From Fimbriimonadia bacterium (GTDB lineage Bacteria > Armatimonadota > Fimbriimonadia > Fimbriimonadales > JABRVX01): a stretch of 64,000 nt of DNA. Of this stretch, positions 4,226-43,332 are shown one piece after another. Position numbers and translations under genes: made by a program. The stretch spans positions 62,001 through 126,000 of the forward strand of contig JABRVX010000020.1 in the NCBI GenBank assembly GCA_039961735.1. The letters run 5' to 3'. Position 1 is the first letter of the stretch. Every line of letters starts with the position of its first letter. The notes under the pieces were generated by a model. That model saw nothing but the letters and a program-made list of their open reading frames with translations. It was not told the DNA's origin and made no database searches.

Positions 4226-5248
4226 CTAGTTTCCTCCCCCGAGCCGTCGTCGTAGGTCGCGCGTGGCATCCCCGATGCGCGTCAGCCCCGCTTGCGCATC
4301 CTTACCTATCAGCCTGTTAGGGAAGCTCCCACGGATCCGCGCCGGTGTTATGCGCAGCGATGTCAGAGTTCCATCCCGATAGCGCATCTCGAAGACCAAA
4401 GTTTCGCCGAGAGGGCCAGCGTGATTCGAGGCGGTGAAGTTGCCTAGCGAGTATAGGATCGGCTTGCCACGATAGATGGCATAAGGCTGCAGGACATGTG
4501 GATGATGGCCTATCACTCCATCCGCACCGGCATCTATCGTGGCCTTCGCCAGCGCCACCTGATAGCTAGTGGGTGTTCGGTGCCTTTCCAGCCCCCAGTG
4601 GTATGACACCAGAACGATGTTCGCCATCCGCCTGGCCCTGGAGATCGCGGCACGAAGCTTCGACCGGACCTCGTCCGTGATTCCGTTACCCCCGCCGTGT
4701 AGTGCATTGACGCCTGCTTTCGTGGCACTTGCAGGACCACATGCGGCCAGTGCACCCTCGCCGCGAAAGGCCAGAAACGCCAAAAACACTACCTTTACAC
4801 CGTTCGCATCTAACACCACAGGGCGCGAGGCCTCTTCTAGGTTGCCACCGGCTCCTACCACTCTCATGCCTGCTCGTGATACCCCCGCAATCGTGTCGAG
4901 CAGTCCCTCTGCGCCATAGTCCATCGCATGGTTGTTCGCTAGCGAGAGGACGTCGAAAGAGGCGCCGTCCAGCAGCGGGATCCACGCCGGGTCGGCGCGA
5001 AGAACATACTGTCTCTTCGCAGCCACGTCGCGAGAGCTCTTGGCGGTGGTGGGCTTGCCTGCTTTCGTTGGAGGTGTCTCCAAGTTGCCGAAGGTTACGT
5101 CCGGCATAGCGAGGTACAGCCGCAACGACTGAAACGCGTTCGGTGTGGGCGCGAGTCCGTTCAGCATCAGATCACCCACGGTAGCTACACTGACGGGCGC
5201 CCCCTGCGCGGCGGCGATTGCCTGCCCCGCAACATAAGTCAGCCACAT
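4226..5248 (-). CDS. CapA/PgsA-family metallophosphatase-like protein
   Basis: A 340-residue protein of the CapA family (poly-gamma-glutamate capsule type), which adopts a calcineurin-like metallophosphatase fold. Diagnostic motifs are VATVGDLMLNG, FGNLETP, LSLANNHAMDYG, VSYHWGLE, IGHHPHVLQP and YSLGNF, in the usual order. The N-terminus is only weakly hydrophobic, so export is uncertain. A strong GGAGAGGAG precedes the start and spans the stop of the transglycosylase gene, so it is translated within the flagellar operon. The presence of a CapA homologue between the flagellar transglycosylase and flhA is unusual; a role in the envelope around the basal body is speculation. Confidence 0.88.
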   Translation of the reverse strand: MWLTYVAGQAIAAAQGAPVSVATVGDLMLNGLAPTPNAFQSLRLYLAMPDVTFGNLETPPTKAGKPTTAKSSRDVAAKRQYVLRADPAWIPLLDGASFDVLSLANNHAMDYGAEGLLDTIAGVSRAGMRVVGAGGNLEEASRPVVLDANGVKVVFLAFLAFRGEGALAACGPASATKAGVNALHGGGNGITDEVRSKLRAAISRARRMANIVLVSYHWGLERHRTPTSYQVALAKATIDAGADGVIGHHPHVLQPYAIYRGKPILYSLGNFTASNHAGPLGETLVFEMRYRDGTLTSLRITPARIRGSFPNRLIGKDAQAGLTRIGDATRDLRRRLGGGN

Positions 5249-25975: not shown

Positions 25976-27619
25976 ATGAACTTAGGAAGATGTTTGGCGA
26001 CTGCTGGCGTTCTCACTCTTCTATCGGTTCGGGCCCTCACGCAGGCCCCGGCGTACGAAGTGGCTGTTGCTCCGGACGGCAGTCCCTATGTGAAGGGACA
26101 TGTCCTGGTCGGATTCCACGGTGGTGTGCTCCCCGCCATCCAACTTGGCGAGCGGCTATTCGGGGGCACCGTAGCCCGGCTGCTACCGGAGATCGGTGTC
26201 GCTCTCATCGCGTACCCGGTCGAGCATGACGTGTTTCCAATCATCCGAACGGTAAGCGCGGACCCGAGGGTTCGCTTTGCTGAACCCGACTATATCCTGC
26301 ACACGGCGTTCACGCCGAACGACACGTATTGGGCCAATCAGTGGGGGCCGAAGAAGATTCGTTGCGAAGTGGCCTGGGACTATGGCCAAGGGGATGCCGG
26401 GACCGTCATCGCCATCGTGGATACCGGCATCAACTACAACCACCCGGACCTGAACGACAAATACGTCGGTGGATACGACTTCCACAATGGCGACAACGAT
26501 CCAATGGACGACAACGGCCACGGCACCCACTGCGCCGGGATTGCGGCCGCCGAGACGAATAACGCTACGGGCGTCGCAGGAGTAGGCTTCAACTGCAAGC
26601 TCATGGCTGTGAAGGTCCTCGGTTCCAACGGTTCCGGTACCCTCACGAACGTCGCCTCCGGCATCAACTACGCGACGAGCAACGGTGCGAAGGTGATAAA
26701 CCTGAGTTTGGGAAGCACCAGCAGCTCGAGCACACTCCAATCCGCCGTGGACAACGCTTGGAACAGCGGCGCGGTCGTGTGTTGTGCTGCGGGCAACAAC
26801 GGCAGCACCTCGCTGTTCTACCCGGCTGCCTACCCGAACGCCATCGCAGTTGCCTCCACGGATAGCAACGACGCGCGTTCATCCTTCTCGAACTATGGAG
26901 CATCTTGGGTAGACGTTGCCGCACCCGGCCGCGACATCTATTCGACCTATGGCTCGGGATACGCGTATCTCTCAGGCACCTCCATGGCGTCGCCGCACGT
27001 TGCCGGCGCAGCTGCACTGCTCTACAGCAAGATTGGTGGCGCCCGAAGCAACGCCACTGCGACACAAGTCCGAAATCTGCTGGAGAGCACGGCGGTGTAC
27101 GTCGGCACTTGGGTTGCTAGCGGACGCATAGACCTAGGTGCCGCCATGGCGCAGTTGGGTGGCGGAGGGGGCCAGACTCTCACCTTCGACGCCACGAGTG
27201 TGGTAAGGCTCATCGGCAACATGCGGTCGGCTAACCCCGCTCTGCTGCACGACGACGACAATCAGTTCCTGCAAGTGTCCGCAGTCAAGTCCGGCTCGTC
27301 TCGCGTTACCTCGTACTATGCCGAGTACGTCGTGTCTTCTGCCGCCTGGGTTAGCGGGGTCATCGAACTGAGTGCCCGGGCATCGAGAACGGCCGGTTTA
27401 ACCGTCCAAGCTTACAATTGGCCGTTGGCTCGCTGGGAAACGGTTCTTAGCGGAGTCAACCTTACGACTACGGAAGCATTCAGGACGATCAACTTCCCGA
27501 GCCCCATGTCCGACTACATTTCATCCTCCAACCGAGTGCGCGTTCTGGTCAGGACGTCCTCTGGTCAGTCGCATACGGCCTACACGGACCTCCTGCAGAT
27601 CAAGCTGACGAGTCAGTAG
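25976..27619 (+). CDS. secreted subtilisin-like serine protease (S8) with C-terminal beta domain
   Basis: A 547-residue protease. The start at 25976 gives a signal peptide (LATAGVLTLLSVRALTQA). A propeptide-like region (to about residue 110) precedes the S8 domain with catalytic Asp149 (AIVDTGIN), His182 (DNGHGTHCAG), oxyanion Asn274 (AAGNNGS) and Ser336 (GTSMASPHVAG). The closest type is thermitase/WPRR-like: QWGPKKIRCEVAW. After a GGGG linker, about 150 C-terminal residues form a predicted beta-sandwich without a recognised sorting signal. It is divergent from the PEP-CTERM gene. Confidence 0.92.
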   Translation: MNLGRCLATAGVLTLLSVRALTQAPAYEVAVAPDGSPYVKGHVLVGFHGGVLPAIQLGERLFGGTVARLLPEIGVALIAYPVEHDVFPIIRTVSADPRVRFAEPDYILHTAFTPNDTYWANQWGPKKIRCEVAWDYGQGDAGTVIAIVDTGINYNHPDLNDKYVGGYDFHNGDNDPMDDNGHGTHCAGIAAAETNNATGVAGVGFNCKLMAVKVLGSNGSGTLTNVASGINYATSNGAKVINLSLGSTSSSSTLQSAVDNAWNSGAVVCCAAGNNGSTSLFYPAAYPNAIAVASTDSNDARSSFSNYGASWVDVAAPGRDIYSTYGSGYAYLSGTSMASPHVAGAAALLYSKIGGARSNATATQVRNLLESTAVYVGTWVASGRIDLGAAMAQLGGGGGQTLTFDATSVVRLIGNMRSANPALLHDDDNQFLQVSAVKSGSSRVTSYYAEYVVSSAAWVSGVIELSARASRTAGLTVQAYNWPLARWETVLSGVNLTTTEAFRTINFPSPMSDYISSSNRVRVLVRTSSGQSHTAYTDLLQIKLTSQ

Positions 27620-37685: not shown

Positions 37686-37758
37686 AGGATCCGAGTGAGG
37701 ACGCGAGGTGATCGCGAAGCCACCATCCTCTTCTAAGGCCGCTGCCGGGGCTCTCTCC

Positions 37759-38632
37759 ATGCGGTGCCGGGTCCTGATCGCTCTGCTACCCGTCCTCGTT
37801 GCAGCAGCGGGTCTTCCGACAATAATAGCTTACTCACTCTCGGCTTCAGCGCAGACTGATGCGCTCGCTGCGCAGTACGACGCTTACTTCGTGACCGCCC
37901 CAAGCTGCCCCCAGTGCCGCGTGATGCTTGCCGACATCGTACGGACACCGGGGATCGAGGTGTGGGACTGGTCGAAGCCGGGATCGCGGGCCGCGTACAA
38001 CCGCCTTCGAGAGTTGCACGGGCTACCCCGCCTGACGAAGCCGATTGTACTGCCCCTCTTGGTGACCACCACGCCGGGAGGGCGCTACTGGGAGTGGACG
38101 GGGCCCGGGACATTGCCACGGCGCTATCAGTCATTGGCCGCTGGGACAGACCGCCGTTCCCCCACATGCAGTTGGCTGTGGTGCTCCTTGGCTTCGCGCT
38201 GGGAATGGCCTTCAGCACCCGCATCGGGGCGCAGCGGGCCCCCTCGTGCTGGGCATCGCGGCGGTCGCCGCAGCGGTCAAGATGAGCCTCACGTGCCCAT
38301 CGTGTGATGCTGCTGGAACCGCCGCTGCAACGGGGATGGCGATCGCGGCTTGCGGCATCGGTGCCGCTGCGGCGGGTGCAAGGGCGACAAGCCCGGTACG
38401 TCAACTAGTGGTGCCGTGCGTGCTCGCCGCGCTCTTGGCCGGCCAGTTCTTCCTGCTGATTAGCGACACGCGCGTCTGCTGGCCCTGCACGGCTTTCCTG
38501 TTCTTGGTGAGCCTTCTTGGGGGGGCCATGCCCGCAGCGGTGCGCGAGCTGAGTATGCCCCTGCCGAAACTTGCCGGGCCGCTCCCTGTCGGCGTGTTAG
38601 TGGGCGCGTCGCTCGCGGTCTGGGCGCCCTAG
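37759..38632 (+). pseudogene. membrane thiol oxidoreductase (VKOR-like), frame-broken
   Basis: Three successive frames together give a protein of about 290 residues. Frame one (from GTG 37708 or ATG 37759) has a signal/membrane helix (LIALLPVLVAAAGLPTIIAY) and a thioredoxin/glutaredoxin-like domain with SCPQC. After the G-run near 38100 the sense moves to a second frame (RDIATALSVIGRWD, then LAVVLLGFALGMAFSTRIG). After the G-run near 38225 it moves to a third (VLGIAAVAAAVKMSLTCPSC to TRVCWPCTAFLFLVSLLGG). Membrane helices with CPSC and CWPC pairs recall vitamin K epoxide reductase homologues, which oxidise thiol partners. Both shifts need one extra G. Either a decayed gene or sequence errors; the VKOR assignment is inference. 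Confidence 0.6.
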
Positions 38633-38656: not shown

Positions 38657-39100
38657 ATGCAGACGGATCAGGGGCTTGTGCCAGTGGGCGCGCGCCCCCA
38701 GCAGCCGTCACTCCTCAGGGTCCCGACGAAGAGGTTCGTGCAATCAGTTGAGGCCGGCCCAACGGCAATCGCCAATCGAGTGTTTGTAATGGGGAAGCCA
38801 GCGTGCCCGCCGTGTGAGTCGGCGTACCGGATTCTCCGGGCCGCCTTCGGGCAGCGTGTGGCATTCGTGCGACCCAAAGAGGACTTGGGGATGTACTCAC
38901 GGATCTTCCCGCGTCCGGTGGAGACCGCGAGTACCCCGCTTCGGTACACCATCACCGTCAGTATGTCGCCTCTTCTCGTCGTCACGGATGCGGAGGGCAG
39001 GGTCGTCTGGCAACATTCATCCTGGCCCATCGAGGACGCCGACGCTGAGGCCATATTGCGGCAGGTGGAAGGAGTGTTGGAAACCGGAGGAGAGAGATGA
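38657..39100 (+). CDS. thioredoxin-like protein with CPPC motif
   Basis: A 147-residue protein with a thioredoxin-type active site (RVFVMGKPACPPCESAYRILRAAFG, CPPC at about 50-53) and a later strand SMSPLLVVTDAEGRVVWQH holding a cis-Pro-like position. It has no signal peptide of its own and no Shine-Dalgarno. It is in the same frame as the end of the preceding VKOR-like gene, separated by one TAG; the residues between (AVATASVA) prolong a hydrophobic segment. It may therefore be the C-terminal thioredoxin domain of a VKOR-thioredoxin fusion. Its stop overlaps the next start. Confidence 0.72.
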   Translation: MQTDQGLVPVGARPQQPSLLRVPTKRFVQSVEAGPTAIANRVFVMGKPACPPCESAYRILRAAFGQRVAFVRPKEDLGMYSRIFPRPVETASTPLRYTITVSMSPLLVVTDAEGRVVWQHSSWPIEDADAEAILRQVEGVLETGGER

Positions 39101-39471
39101 GAAGGACATCGCTTTGGAGAGGAGCCGCGCTGGTGGCGGCCCTGGGGGCCGTGGGTTGGATCGCCGTAACGGGGGCGGTGCCATGCGGGCCGGGAGAGTC
39201 CTGGATAAGGTATTGGCGGCCGATCACGGCCTGCTACGACTGGCCCGGGCACTACTGCAATCCTATCAGTTGGAACTACGGATACGCGTGGGGCTGCTGG
39301 CTTTACTGCTGCTACGATCCATACACAGGCGCATTGCTCGGCAAGCATATGGCAGACTGCTACCCCGATCCGTGCGTGCTGAACGGCGGCTGCTGCAACT
39401 TCACCATCTCGTGTGAGGAGGCCCGAGCCAACGACCTGCAGAACTTCGTCTGCCCGGTCTGGGTGCCATGA
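39097..39471 (+). CDS. secreted 12-cysteine, tryptophan-rich small protein
   Basis: A 124-residue protein with a strong GGAGGAGAG ribosome site and an ATGA overlap with the preceding thioredoxin-like gene. Residues 1-28 form a signal peptide or anchor (RGAALVAALGAVGWIAVTGAV). The mature part has 12 Cys (30, 46, 54, 67, 71, 72, 88, 93, 99, 100, 106, 119) and seven of the nine Trp, in motifs such as YAWGCWLYCCYD and CVLNGGCC. An even number of Cys in an exported protein next to thiol oxidoreductases suggests six disulfides. I do not recognise the family. Methylamine dehydrogenase light chain also has 12 Cys and needs dedicated redox helpers, but no sequence match to it is evident. Confidence 0.75.
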   Translation: MRRTSLWRGAALVAALGAVGWIAVTGAVPCGPGESWIRYWRPITACYDWPGHYCNPISWNYGYAWGCWLYCCYDPYTGALLGKHMADCYPDPCVLNGGCCNFTISCEEARANDLQNFVCPVWVP

Positions 39472-40201
39472 CGGTTAGGCGAAAGCAACGGGATCTCCAC
39501 CGCCAAGGAGGCAGTGGCGCAGCCGCAGCGACTGGCCCTCACGGTGCCCACGCCGGTGTACGTGCGCCGCCGCTGCGGGCACAGCGCCGGTGGCGTCGCG
39601 GCTTCACTCTTATCGAACTGCTGATGGTGGTCGCGGTGGTAGGGGTCGTGTTGGGGCTGGTCTACCCCGTCGTGCTGCAGGCGCGACGGCAGTCACTGCG
39701 CGCGTCCTGTACGACGAACCTGCGCAATCTCTACGTCGCGCTTCAAGCCTACTGCGATGATCACGGCGGCTGGCGCAATGCGCCGCGGTATCTGTCGGCC
39801 ATCGAGCCGTACGCAAAGGACATGAGGGTAATGCATTGCGGTGCAGACCCGAGACCGACCACCGGGACTCGGTTCCCACTCATCATCGGCTGCCCGTGGG
39901 ATGTGCCGCCCTACGTGCGCTATCCCGTGAGCTACCACTACATTCGCCACTTCGAGCCCTGGGACGGCGCCTACCACTGGCGCTGGATCCTGGCGCGAGC
40001 CCCGCGCCTCGGGATCCTCGCCTGCCCATGGCACGGGTACAAGTGCAGGAATCAGACGACGCTCGTGCCGTTTGGCAGGTATTGCGGCTCCAGATAGATG
40101 GATCGGTGGCAAGCATGCGCGGGCTGGACGAAGGGGACCCATGGGCCTTCACGTTCTGCGATAACTACACGTATTTCATCGAGGGAGCGAGTGGGAGGTA
40201 G
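39468..40201 (+). pseudogene. type II/IV pseudopilin with 45-residue leader, frame-broken near its end
   Basis: The N-terminus [26 protein letters not shown] is a class III prepilin signal with cleavage after Gly45; the preceding basic leader is exceptionally long. The body has at least seven Cys, unusual for pseudopilins (CTTNLRNLYVALQAYC, MHCGAD, CPWHGYKC). The first frame ends at 40097, but the plus-two frame continues with VLRLQIDGSVASMRGLDEGDPWAFTFCDNYTYFIEG to 40201, the expected end of an H-X9-DG-type pilin. One G missing in the TTTGGCAGG near 40070 would explain it. The start overlaps the cysteine-rich gene (ATGA), so it is coupled. Confidence 0.65.
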
Positions 40202-40205
40202 GACG

Positions 40206-40646
40206 ATGGGGAAGTGGCTGGCTTGGTTCGGCATGGTTGCGGGCATCTGGTTCGCTTCGGGCTTCCTCTCCGGGCTTGTATGGGTATCGATCGGCGTGGG
40301 CACGCGCGTGTACAGCCAGGGGGTGGCAGTGAGCGCGCTGGTTTCTGGCGGGCTTGGGCTGCTTGTTCTCGGGCCACTTTGGCATCTGAGTCGTCGCCAG
40401 CCTGGCATCAGCATCACCCTTTGTGCGGTAACCGCAGCAGCGCTCATGAATGGCTTCCGAATGCTGCTTGGGTATCAATCCCACGGGATCCTGACGTACA
40501 ATACGCTGTTCGACGCCGCCGTTCCACTTCTCATCGGGGGTAGCAGTGCAGCCCTGTGCTGGGTGGGATACTGGTATCTGGACCTCGGCGTGGGTGAGCG
40601 CAAGGGGCAGGTCTCCACGTCCCACCCAGGAGAGCGCCTGGGGTGA
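40206..40646 (+). CDS. four-helix membrane protein
   Basis: A 146-residue integral membrane protein. Hydrophobic segments at about 3-28, 35-57, 67-88 and 98-122 (WLAWFGMVAGIWFASGFLSGLVW; LVSGGLGLLVLGPLWHL; ITLCAVTAAALMNGFRMLL; LLIGGSSAALCWVGYWYL). GGGAGG lies 8 bp before the ATG, inside the end of the pilin frame. Family not recognised. As the last gene of the locus it could anchor or transport the cysteine-rich protein or pilin; that is inference from position only. Confidence 0.65.
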   Translation: MGKWLAWFGMVAGIWFASGFLSGLVWVSIGVGTRVYSQGVAVSALVSGGLGLLVLGPLWHLSRRQPGISITLCAVTAAALMNGFRMLLGYQSHGILTYNTLFDAAVPLLIGGSSAALCWVGYWYLDLGVGERKGQVSTSHPGERLG

Positions 40647-40702: not shown

Positions 40703-41749
40703 TCAGGCGACCGAGGGCAGGCTGCGGAACCAGCGGCGCTGGAACCATAGCGAGACGTTGACGAGCGAGATCAGCACCGGGACCTCCACCAAGGGACCGA
40801 TTACTGCTGCGAACGCCGCTCCGCTCTTGATACCGAATACTGCCACTGCAACTGCGATGGCGAGCTCGAAGTTGTTGCTAGCAGCGGTGAACGAGATTGT
40901 CGCGGTTCTGGAGTAGTCGGCACCCAAGCTCTTTCCGATCCAAAAAGAGACCAGAAACATCAGAACGAAGTAGAAGAGCAGAGGCACCGCGATCCGTAGC
41001 ACGTCGAGTGGAAGCTGCACGATCACTTCACCCTTTAGCGAGAACATGACGACGATGGTGAACAGCAACGCGATGAGGGTGATGGGCGAGATCACCGGGA
41101 TGAACCTCTTCTCATACCACTCACGCCCTTTCGCCCGCACCAGGGTGAAGCGTGTTAGCATACCAGCGATGAACGGGATGCCGAGGTAGATGAACACACT
41201 CTCTGCGATCTGGCCTATGCTTATCTGGACGATGCTACCCCTCATGCCGAACACCGGCGGTAGCAGCGTGATGAATACGTAGGCGTACACCGAGAAGAAG
41301 AACACCTGAAAGATCGAGTTGAATGCCACGAGCCCCGCAGCGTACTCGGTGTCACCCTTTGCGAGGTCGTTCCACACGATTACCATCGCGATGCAGCGTG
41401 CCAAACCTATCATGATCAAACCGACCATGTATTCCGGGTAGCCCGCGAGGAATAGCAGTGCCAACGCGAACATGAGCACCGGCCCGATCACCCAGTTGAG
41501 GAGCAGCGAGATGCCAAGGATGCGAAAGTCGCGGAACACACTCGGCAACTCCTCGTACCGCACCTTGGCGAGCGGCGGGTACATCATCAGGATCAGCCCT
41601 ACCGCAATCGGGATGGACGTGGTCCCCACCTGAAAGCGGGTACTCAGTTGCGCCACGGCGGGCCAGAAGTGACCGAGCCCTACCCCGAACGCCATGCCCA
41701 GGAATATCCACAACGTGAGGTAGCGGTCTAGCAGGCTCAGCCGTCGCAT
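40703..41749 (-). CDS. acr3: arsenite efflux permease Acr3
   Basis: A 348-residue, ten-helix transporter of the ACR3 (BART superfamily) type that exports As(OH)3. The N-terminus [26 protein letters not shown], the [16 protein letters not shown] segment with the essential Cys, and the [21 protein letters not shown] motif are diagnostic. It is the last gene of arsR-arsM-arsC-acr3 and overlaps arsC by 13 bp. Confidence 0.95.
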
Positions 41750-42144
41750 CGTCTCAACTCCTCCACCAACTGCTCGACTCGGGCACGTACTTCGTCCCGT
41801 ATTCTTCGCACCTCTTCAATCGGCCGTCCCTTGGGGTCGTCCAACCCCCAGTCCTCGCACTCCATGCGAAGTGCCGGGCAGGACTCCGCGTCCACCCCGC
41901 ATCCCATTGTGATCACCCTATCGGCCGCCTGTGCCATCTCGGGTGTCAGCAGCTTGGGTGTATGCCCCGACATGTCGTATCCGACCTCTGCCATCGCCTC
42001 CACCACCATCGGATTGAGCGTTGCTCCACCCTCGGTGCCAGCCGACTCCGCGATCGCGACATCCGCACCCAACCGCCTGAGAAATGCCTCGGCCATCTGG
42101 CTGCGCCCGGCGTTGTGTACGCATACGAATAGCACCCGCTTCAT
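41737..42144 (-). CDS. arsC: arsenate reductase, low-molecular-weight phosphatase type
   Basis: A 135-residue reductase of the thioredoxin-coupled LMW-PTPase class. The P-loop VCVHNAGRS contains the nucleophile Cys8 and Arg14. Later Cys ([26 protein letters not shown]) form the relay disulfide, and DDPKG contains the general acid. It reduces arsenate to arsenite for export by Acr3. Its ATG overlaps the arsM stop (ATGA). Confidence 0.95.
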
Positions 42145-42977
42145 GCGTGCGGCTTCCTCGCGCGGATGAACGCTGCCATGATACCTCCGTCCAGTCGCAG
42201 TCTCTCCTCGGTATCCAACAGACCAAGGGCCCCCGGTTTCAGACCCACTGACTCCGCGTCGGCAAACGTGTAGCGGCGCGTCGGCTCCACACTCACTTCG
42301 ATAAAGCCTGCCGCCTCCAGCCTCCGCACGTAGTCGGTCCGTTCCAGTGCCCCCGCGATGCACCCGACGAACAACTCCATGTCCTTTCGCACCGCCTCTG
42401 GCAGTTCGCCCTCCACTACCACGTCCGACACGGCGAAGCGTCCGCCCGGGCGCAGCACGCGAAAGGCTTCTGCGAACACTCGGTCCTTGTCCGCCGATAG
42501 GTTGATCACGCAGTTCGAGATGATCACGTCTACGCTATCGTCTGGGAGCGGGATGGCCTCGATGTGTCCCTTCAAGAACCGAACATTCTCGAGGCCGGCA
42601 GCTTCCCGATTGCGCTCGGCCAGATCCAGCATCTCGTCCGTCATGTCTAGGCCGTAAGCAAACCCGGACGGTCCCACGCGCTTGGCGGACAGCAGTACGT
42701 CAATTCCGCCGCCACTCCCTAGGTCCAGGACCGTTTCTCCTTCTCTGAGTTCTGCCAATGCGGTCGGGTTACCACAGCCCAACGACGCCAGCACGGCCTG
42801 CTCCGGCAGCGTTTCAGTCTCCATACGGCTGTAAAGATCCGCCGTTATTGGATCGCAGCCTCCCGAGCCGCAGCAACTGCCCTTCTCGCCCGAGATCACG
42901 TGCAAGGCTGCCCCCGCGTATCTCTCTCGTACGGCCTGCTCTATCTGCTCGGACCGGTCGTTCTCATCTGCCATCAC
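42141..42977 (-). CDS. arsM: arsenite S-adenosylmethionine methyltransferase ArsM
   Basis: A 278-residue methyltransferase. The N-terminal Cys cluster (GSCCGSGGC, C35, C36, C41), the SAM site VLDLGSGGGIDVLLSAKRVG, and the catalytic Cys in ISNCVINL and VGCIAGAL follow the ArsM layout. It methylates arsenite to less retained, volatile species. ArsM together with Acr3 gives two detoxification routes. The start overlaps arsR by about 14 bp. Confidence 0.93.
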   Translation of the reverse strand: MMADENDRSEQIEQAVRERYAGAALHVISGEKGSCCGSGGCDPITADLYSRMETETLPEQAVLASLGCGNPTALAELREGETVLDLGSGGGIDVLLSAKRVGPSGFAYGLDMTDEMLDLAERNREAAGLENVRFLKGHIEAIPLPDDSVDVIISNCVINLSADKDRVFAEAFRVLRPGGRFAVSDVVVEGELPEAVRKDMELFVGCIAGALERTDYVRRLEAAGFIEVSVEPTRRYTFADAESVGLKPGALGLLDTEERLRLDGGIMAAFIRARKPHA

Positions 42978-43332
42978 TCGTCGCTCCTTCCTCGACGCAA
43001 CACTCCTCGGCGGCCTCCACGAAGTTTGCTAGTGCTCGAACTGCCTCCGGGTTGACAGAACAGATCAGGTGTCGGCCCTGCCTGGTGACGTCAATCAGGC
43101 CCGACGTGCGTAGCTCCTTCAGGTGAAAGGAGACGGCCGAAGACACCCGCTCCTCGCCGGTGACGTGGCAGCACACCTCGCCCACAGTCTGGCCGTGCAC
43201 GCGGCGGACATCGCCGGAATCGTCCATGGCCACGGGACGGCAGACGTCCCGCAGGAAGCAGAAGATCCGAAGCCGCGTCGGTTCGCCCAGCGCCTTGAAG
43301 TATCTTGCGAGCTTGATTTGGTCCGGTGTCAT
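42964..43332 (-). CDS. arsR: ArsR-family arsenic-responsive repressor
   Basis: A 122-residue winged-helix repressor. ARYFKALGEPTRLRIFCFLRD is the typical ArsR N-terminal helix; SSAVSFHLKELRTSGLIDVTRQGRHLIC is the DNA-recognition and wing region. The vicinal pair C54-C55 (GEVCCHVTG), with a C-terminal EECCVEEG, offers thiols for As(III). First gene of the operon, which it should repress until arsenite binds. Confidence 0.93.
   Translation of the reverse strand: MTPDQIKLARYFKALGEPTRLRIFCFLRDVCRPVAMDDSGDVRRVHGQTVGEVCCHVTGEERVSSAVSFHLKELRTSGLIDVTRQGRHLICSVNPEAVRALANFVEAAEECCVEEGATSDGR

What the first reader, a model, noticed from the sequence alone, without database searches (positions are those of the whole stretch)
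39097..39471. Orphan small protein with 12 cysteines and tryptophan-rich core
Cys at 30, 46, 54, 67, 71, 72, 88, 93, 99, 100, 106 and 119, with two CC pairs and aromatic clusters. The frame is intact with a strong ribosome site although its neighbours carry lesions, suggesting selection. Exported, disulfide-rich and Trp-rich proteins can carry protein-derived cofactors (as TTQ in MauA) or be toxins or structural plugs. The family is not recognised.
Basis: partly seen in the sequence, partly recalled or inferred. Interest (0 to 1): 0.7.

Follow-up and report, generated by a model that had tools for sequence, protein, structure and literature searches.

The report
Disulfide-rich exported protein with own oxidase
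The small cysteine-packed protein is not an orphan: it belongs to an undescribed, fast-changing family of exported proteins that are nearly always encoded beside their own disulfide-forming type of enzyme, a pilin-like protein and a small membrane protein, so it is probably a disulfide-stapled surface or secreted protein made by a dedicated folding cassette.

Summary
The ORF is as described: 124 aa, 12 Cys, two CC pairs, a Shine-Dalgarno site, ATGA overlaps with both neighbours, frameshifted genes nearby. It is not an orphan. Searching the mature part through 291 genomes of its phylum, then iterating, found 21 loci in 16 genomes. Almost all share one cassette: a membrane oxidoreductase (Trx / VKOR-like / Trx), this Cys-rich exported protein, a prepilin-like protein and a ~140-aa membrane protein. 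Homologues are 19-34% identical, yet 17 of 18 aligned mature parts hold exactly 10 or 12 Cys, and Cys gains and losses compensate, as a fully disulfide-bonded protein predicts. No Trp is conserved, so the TTQ idea fails. The own genome carries three further cassettes: two lost the Cys-rich gene, one keeps a 12-Cys paralogue. In two close genome pairs the mature part diverges much faster than signal peptide and neighbouring genes, at synonymous sites too, suggesting allele replacement. Best explanation: a Sec-exported protein oxidised by its own VKOR/Trx-like enzyme and displayed or secreted with the pilin-like protein. A variable antibacterial toxin with the membrane protein as immunity remains possible. 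The family is absent from Pfam, NCBIfam, PADLOC and PDB.

The parts
37708..38136 (+). Trx1-like N-terminal domain of the cassette oxidoreductase (CPQC); the ORF runs on to 38307 but leaves the native frame near 38090-38130
   Evidence: 34-39% identical to own-genome copies on C5 and C59; frame analysis
38137..38632 (+). VKOR-like transmembrane part, broken by frame changes; carries CPSC and CWPC
   Evidence: frames; same layout in intact 410-442 aa homologues
38657..39100 (+). Trx2-like protein, CPPC active-site motif, intact
   Evidence: own-genome paralogue E 5e-19; the family's Trx2 region matches glutaredoxin structures at E 1.8e-5
39086..39092 (+). Shine-Dalgarno GGAGGAG
   Evidence: sequence; nearly the same sequence before the leader remnant in own copy 2
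39097..39471 (+). Cys-rich exported protein, 124 aa, hydrophobic leader about residues 6-29, mature part with 12 Cys
39468..40097 (+). prepilin-like protein (GFTLIELL); native C-terminal part continues in another frame to about 40201
   Evidence: Pfam N_methyl 4.5e-7; aligned with own copies and frames
40206..40646 (+). small multi-TM membrane protein
   Evidence: 28-32% identical to own copies 2 and 3; hydropathy

Best explanation
The protein is the exported substrate of a dedicated oxidative-folding cassette. It leaves the cytoplasm through Sec by its N-terminal leader. Its 12 Cys (10 in most relatives) are paired into disulfides by the Trx2 domain, which is re-oxidised through the VKOR-like membrane domain of the cassette oxidoreductase, presumably by quinone. 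The stapled, sequence-variable product is then displayed or released together with the co-encoded pilin-like protein, the small membrane protein acting as anchor or assembly helper. Shown: family, cassette, Cys constancy, compensating Cys changes, variable mature part. Inferred: export, the disulfides themselves, which enzyme oxidises it, and the link to the pilin-like protein.
For: Homologues found with the mature part (G151 E 7.6e-6, G108 E 2.9e-4) lie in the same four-gene order with an intact fused oxidase of 428-432 aa; profile iteration adds further loci. 17 of 18 aligned mature parts hold exactly 10 or 12 Cys at 19-34% identity to the window protein. The second Cys of CCY is missing in exactly the four of 13 sequences that gain a C-terminal CPC Cys (chance 1 in 715), and the fused G072 member follows the same rule. 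The oxidase has three invariant CxxC: between two TM segments, at the start of a later TM, and in a Trx domain; the Trx part matches glutaredoxins. VKOR-DsbA fusions restore disulfide formation in E. coli dsb mutants (PMC12453122). Conserved junction: own copy 2 keeps the RBS, start overlap and leader where the gene should be.
Against: The window's oxidase gene is frameshifted and two own copies have lost the Cys-rich gene, so the window copy may be dying. The cassette oxidase is below Pfam's VKOR cut-off although ordinary VKOR genes in the same genomes are recognised. No structure supports the pairing. G169 and G064 show the cassette without a visible Cys-rich gene. G039's second copy has 9 Cys. 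The pilin link is gene order only.
Confidence: 0.6

Rival explanations
1. Secreted antibacterial peptide or toxin: the disulfide-stapled mature part acts on competing bacteria, the pilin-like protein helps export and the small membrane protein gives immunity.
For: Mature part diverges far faster than its signal peptide and than the neighbouring genes, at synonymous sites too, in two close genome pairs; a ~140-aa multi-TM protein lies close in the cassettes.
Against: No toxin family, defence family or structure match; a mature size of about 80-105 aa with 10 Cys is large for a bacteriocin; own copies 2 and 3 keep the membrane and pilin-like genes without the Cys-rich gene.
Confidence: 0.2
2. 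Structural or adhesive surface component fixed to a type IV-like filament, with variability driven by phage or grazer recognition (a narrower form of the best explanation).
For: Constant neighbour is a prepilin-like protein; most cassette pilin-like proteins keep a Cys pair (CDPxDxWRxSC type) and three (L114, L119, L120) lose both Cys, as a disulfide would (read).
Against: No filament assembly genes in the cassette; the genome has about 60 pilin-like genes, most without this partner.
Confidence: 0.35
3. TTQ-type cofactor protein (as MauA).
For: Trp-rich in the window copy, many Cys, thioredoxin-type neighbours.
Against: No conserved Trp; one homologue has none in its mature part; no dehydrogenase large-subunit gene in the cassette.
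Confidence: 0.01
4. Decaying remnant without function in this genome.
For: Frameshifts in two of the cassette genes here, deletions in own copies 2 and 3.
Against: The Cys-rich frame, all 12 Cys, the RBS and both overlaps are intact; Trx2 is intact; a second 12-Cys paralogue persists on C8.
Confidence: 0.2

Closest known systems
Bacterial VKOR-DsbA fusion enzymes (Synechococcus, Clostridium sp.)
   Same: Membrane part with two Cys pairs between TM segments followed by a Trx-type domain with CxxC; in those enzymes it makes disulfides in exported proteins (PMC12453122)
   Different: Many of the cassette enzymes have an extra N-terminal Trx-like domain, none is recognised by Pfam VKOR, and they sit beside one small Cys-rich gene; ordinary VKOR genes exist elsewhere in the same genomes
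Prepilin-like / DUF1559-type proteins
   Same: GFTLIELL methylation motif
   Different: Most cassette members carry a Cys pair and have a constant Cys-rich neighbour
NVEALA-type Cys-rich exported peptides beside redox genes in Bacteroidetes (from memory, a lead only)
   Same: Small exported Cys-rich product beside redox genes
   Different: No Pfam or NCBIfam match; different partners
MauA (TTQ)
   Same: Many Cys, Trp, thioredoxin-type neighbour
   Different: No conserved Trp pair

Membership tests
VKOR (PF07884), for the cassette oxidase | Pfam profile match over cut-off | tested here: not met
   Cassette oxidase absent from the hits or E 9.8 (G089), while other VKOR genes of the same genomes score over the cut-off
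VKOR (PF07884), for the cassette oxidase | Cys pair in a loop between TM segments, CxxC at a later TM, fused Trx | tested here: met
   Invariant Cys columns in 14 sequences and TM placement by hydropathy; the four-helix fold itself is not shown
Thioredoxin/glutaredoxin, for Trx2 | Profile match and CxxC | tested here: met
   Profile of the family matches glutaredoxin 2klx E 1.8e-5; CxxC invariant; single sequences match Pfam only weakly
Type IV prepilin-like, for 39468-40097 | N-terminal methylation motif | tested here: met
   PF07963 4.5e-7 over cut-off; TIGR02532 over cut-off
TTQ proteins (MauA) | Two conserved Trp that cross-link | tested here: not met
   No conserved Trp column
The cassette family of Cys-rich proteins defined here | Eight invariant Cys, even Cys total, oxidase and pilin-like neighbours | tested here: met
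Bacteriocin with immunity protein | Killing activity and protection | not testable with these tools
   Needs a bench assay

The most novel reading that the evidence does not exclude
A previously undescribed system in which a dedicated VKOR/Trx-type oxidase folds a swap-prone, hypervariable, disulfide-stapled effector that a pilin-like protein delivers to other bacteria, with the small membrane protein as immunity.
Probability: 0.15. Interest if true: 0.85.

Novelty: new variant of a known kind. Interest (0 to 1): 0.6.

Why it matters
Bacterial disulfide enzymes are usually seen as general housekeepers. Here a second, diverged VKOR/Trx-type enzyme is tied to one small variable exported protein and a pilin-like partner across several families of a phylum. 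If true, it gives a ready-made enzyme and substrate pair for studying multi-disulfide folding, a way to test whether the pilin-like genes so abundant in this genome export or display partners, and a new family of hypervariable extracellular proteins.

Tried and rejected
Orphan status: the full-length query missed relatives in 100 nearest genomes, in genome contigs, viral contigs, plasmids and PDB; only the mature part over the whole phylum found them. Trx2 and membrane-protein profiles built from own copies alone did not reach other genomes convincingly, nor did the Trx1 profile in genome contigs. Of the weak hits, L066 (G186) and L067 (G138) showed no cassette ORFs on inspection and I treat them as chance. 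G156/G157 likewise lack the cassette. Single-sequence structure prediction was uninformative; folding with homologues from the genome search was not attempted because the tool lists only other sources as allowed. A plasmid search with the G108 oxidase found nothing. TTQ rejected on Trp conservation.

Full report
Observation. GGAGGAG ends four bases before the ATG. The start overlaps the stop of the gene before it (ATGA) and its stop overlaps a candidate start of the next gene (ATGA). The oxidoreductase gene further upstream (37708 to 38632) changes frame twice and the pilin-like gene downstream changes frame once. Cys number alone proves little: another open frame of the window, on the minus strand at 26667-27116, reaches 13 Cys per 100 residues.

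Own genome. The Trx2 gene (38657-39100) has a paralogue on contig C5, the Trx1 part has further copies on C5 and C59, and the pilin-like gene has the same two strong partners. Copy 2 (L041) has Trx1 and Trx2 in one frame without the VKOR-like part. Its native Trx2 frame ends GGEK-stop, overlapping a GTG preceded by nearly the same RBS; a 23-codon leader follows and then a jump into the second half of the pilin-like gene. So the Cys-rich gene probably stood there and was deleted. Copy 3 (L049) keeps Trx1, the pilin-like and the membrane gene, with shreds of the VKOR-like and Trx2 parts between. A fourth cassette on C8 (L103) has a 12-Cys paralogue at 4574-4960, minus strand.

Relatives. The full-length protein found nothing convincing in the 100 nearest genomes or in the public collections. 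The mature part searched through 291 genomes of the phylum found G151 (E 7.6e-6) and G108 (E 2.9e-4). Both carry an intact cassette: a fused Trx-VKOR-like-Trx protein (428 and 432 aa), the Cys-rich gene, a prepilin-like gene and a small membrane protein gene. Profiles then found more: G033, G039 (two), G061 (two), G066, G069 (two), G072, G084, G085, G089 (two), G139, G141 (split over two contigs), G150 (partly deleted) and G006 (frameshifted). With the window and C8 that is 21 loci in 16 genomes. In some, the membrane gene comes before the pilin-like gene (L146, L149, L140, L103). G064 and G169 have the cassette without a Cys-rich gene that I could see. The oxidase profile matched 22 of 291 genomes at E 1e-5 or better.

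Cysteines. In 13 aligned members eight Cys are invariant (window 46, 54, 71, 88, 99, 100, 106, 119), and a further Cys near the start of the mature part is present in nearly all, probably C30 in the window. All 13 have 10 or 12 Cys in the mature part; with five more members, 17 of 18 do, and the exception (G039 second copy, 9 Cys) looks truncated. Changes compensate. C72 is missing in exactly the four of 13 that gain a C-terminal CPC Cys (1 in 715 by chance), and the fused G072 member fits too. A Cys at the C67 position is present where C106 is missing in L146, L136, L140 and L149. The window and its C8 paralogue alone have 12, with a Cys at the C67 position and another just after C88 (C93 in the window). 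These are the traces that disulfides would leave. No Trp is conserved.

Evolution. Between G151 and G150 the signal-peptide DNA is 93% identical and the oxidase and pilin-like genes 79-84%, but the mature part does not align by blastn. By codon counts the mature part is saturated at synonymous sites (pS 0.88, against 0.39 in the oxidase; pN 0.36 against 0.09). G139 and G141 show the same with less contrast (mature C part pS 0.93, pN 0.39; oxidase pS 0.62, pN 0.13). Faster change at synonymous sites as well points to replacement of the mature part by recombination rather than only relaxed selection. This rests on two pairs and short stretches.

Mechanism. The oxidase has three invariant CxxC pairs: one between two TM segments, one at the start of a later TM, one in a Trx domain that matches glutaredoxins by profile. 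That is the layout of VKOR-DsbA fusions, which make disulfides in exported proteins; VKOR uses quinones (PMC12453122). Pfam's VKOR model does not recognise it, although it recognises ordinary VKOR genes in 10 of 11 of the same genomes. So the cassette enzyme works like a VKOR fusion by anatomy, but I do not file it as a member of that Pfam family; it would be a second, dedicated enzyme. In G072 the Cys-rich domain is joined in frame to the VKOR-like part, which supports a functional link but could also be a deletion like those in own copies.

Known or new. No match for the Cys-rich family in Pfam, NCBIfam, PADLOC or PDB, and the papers searched hold no description. Structure prediction of the window protein alone gave pLDDT 46 and was not used.

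Verdict. The finding is sound; the orphan label and the TTQ idea are not. It is one member of an undescribed disulfide-rich exported family with a dedicated oxidase and a pilin-like partner. Whether its job is surface display or attack is open.

Noticed in passing
L103 (own contig C8) 2796-5744: A fourth cassette in the window's genome with a second 12-Cys protein, two small membrane genes and a pilin-like gene; its oxidase is broken into pieces.
   Followed up: partly
L105, L108, L109, L041, L049: The VKOR-like half of the cassette oxidase is deleted or shredded again and again (G139, G150, G149, own copies 2 and 3), with G149 and G150 breaking at nearly the same place. Cause unknown; assembly error not excluded.
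   Followed up: partly
L138 1423-2442: In G072 the Cys-rich domain is fused in frame to the VKOR-like membrane part and the Trx2 domain is missing.
   Followed up: no
window 40703-43332 (-): Cluster of a sodium/bile-acid-symporter-family transporter, a low-molecular-weight phosphatase-family (ArsC-like) protein and a methyltransferase, with an ArsR-like regulator by eye: probably arsenic resistance and methylation.
   Followed up: partly
whole genome G000: About 60 pilin-like genes in a 3.2-Mb genome, far more than a type IV pilus needs.
   Followed up: no
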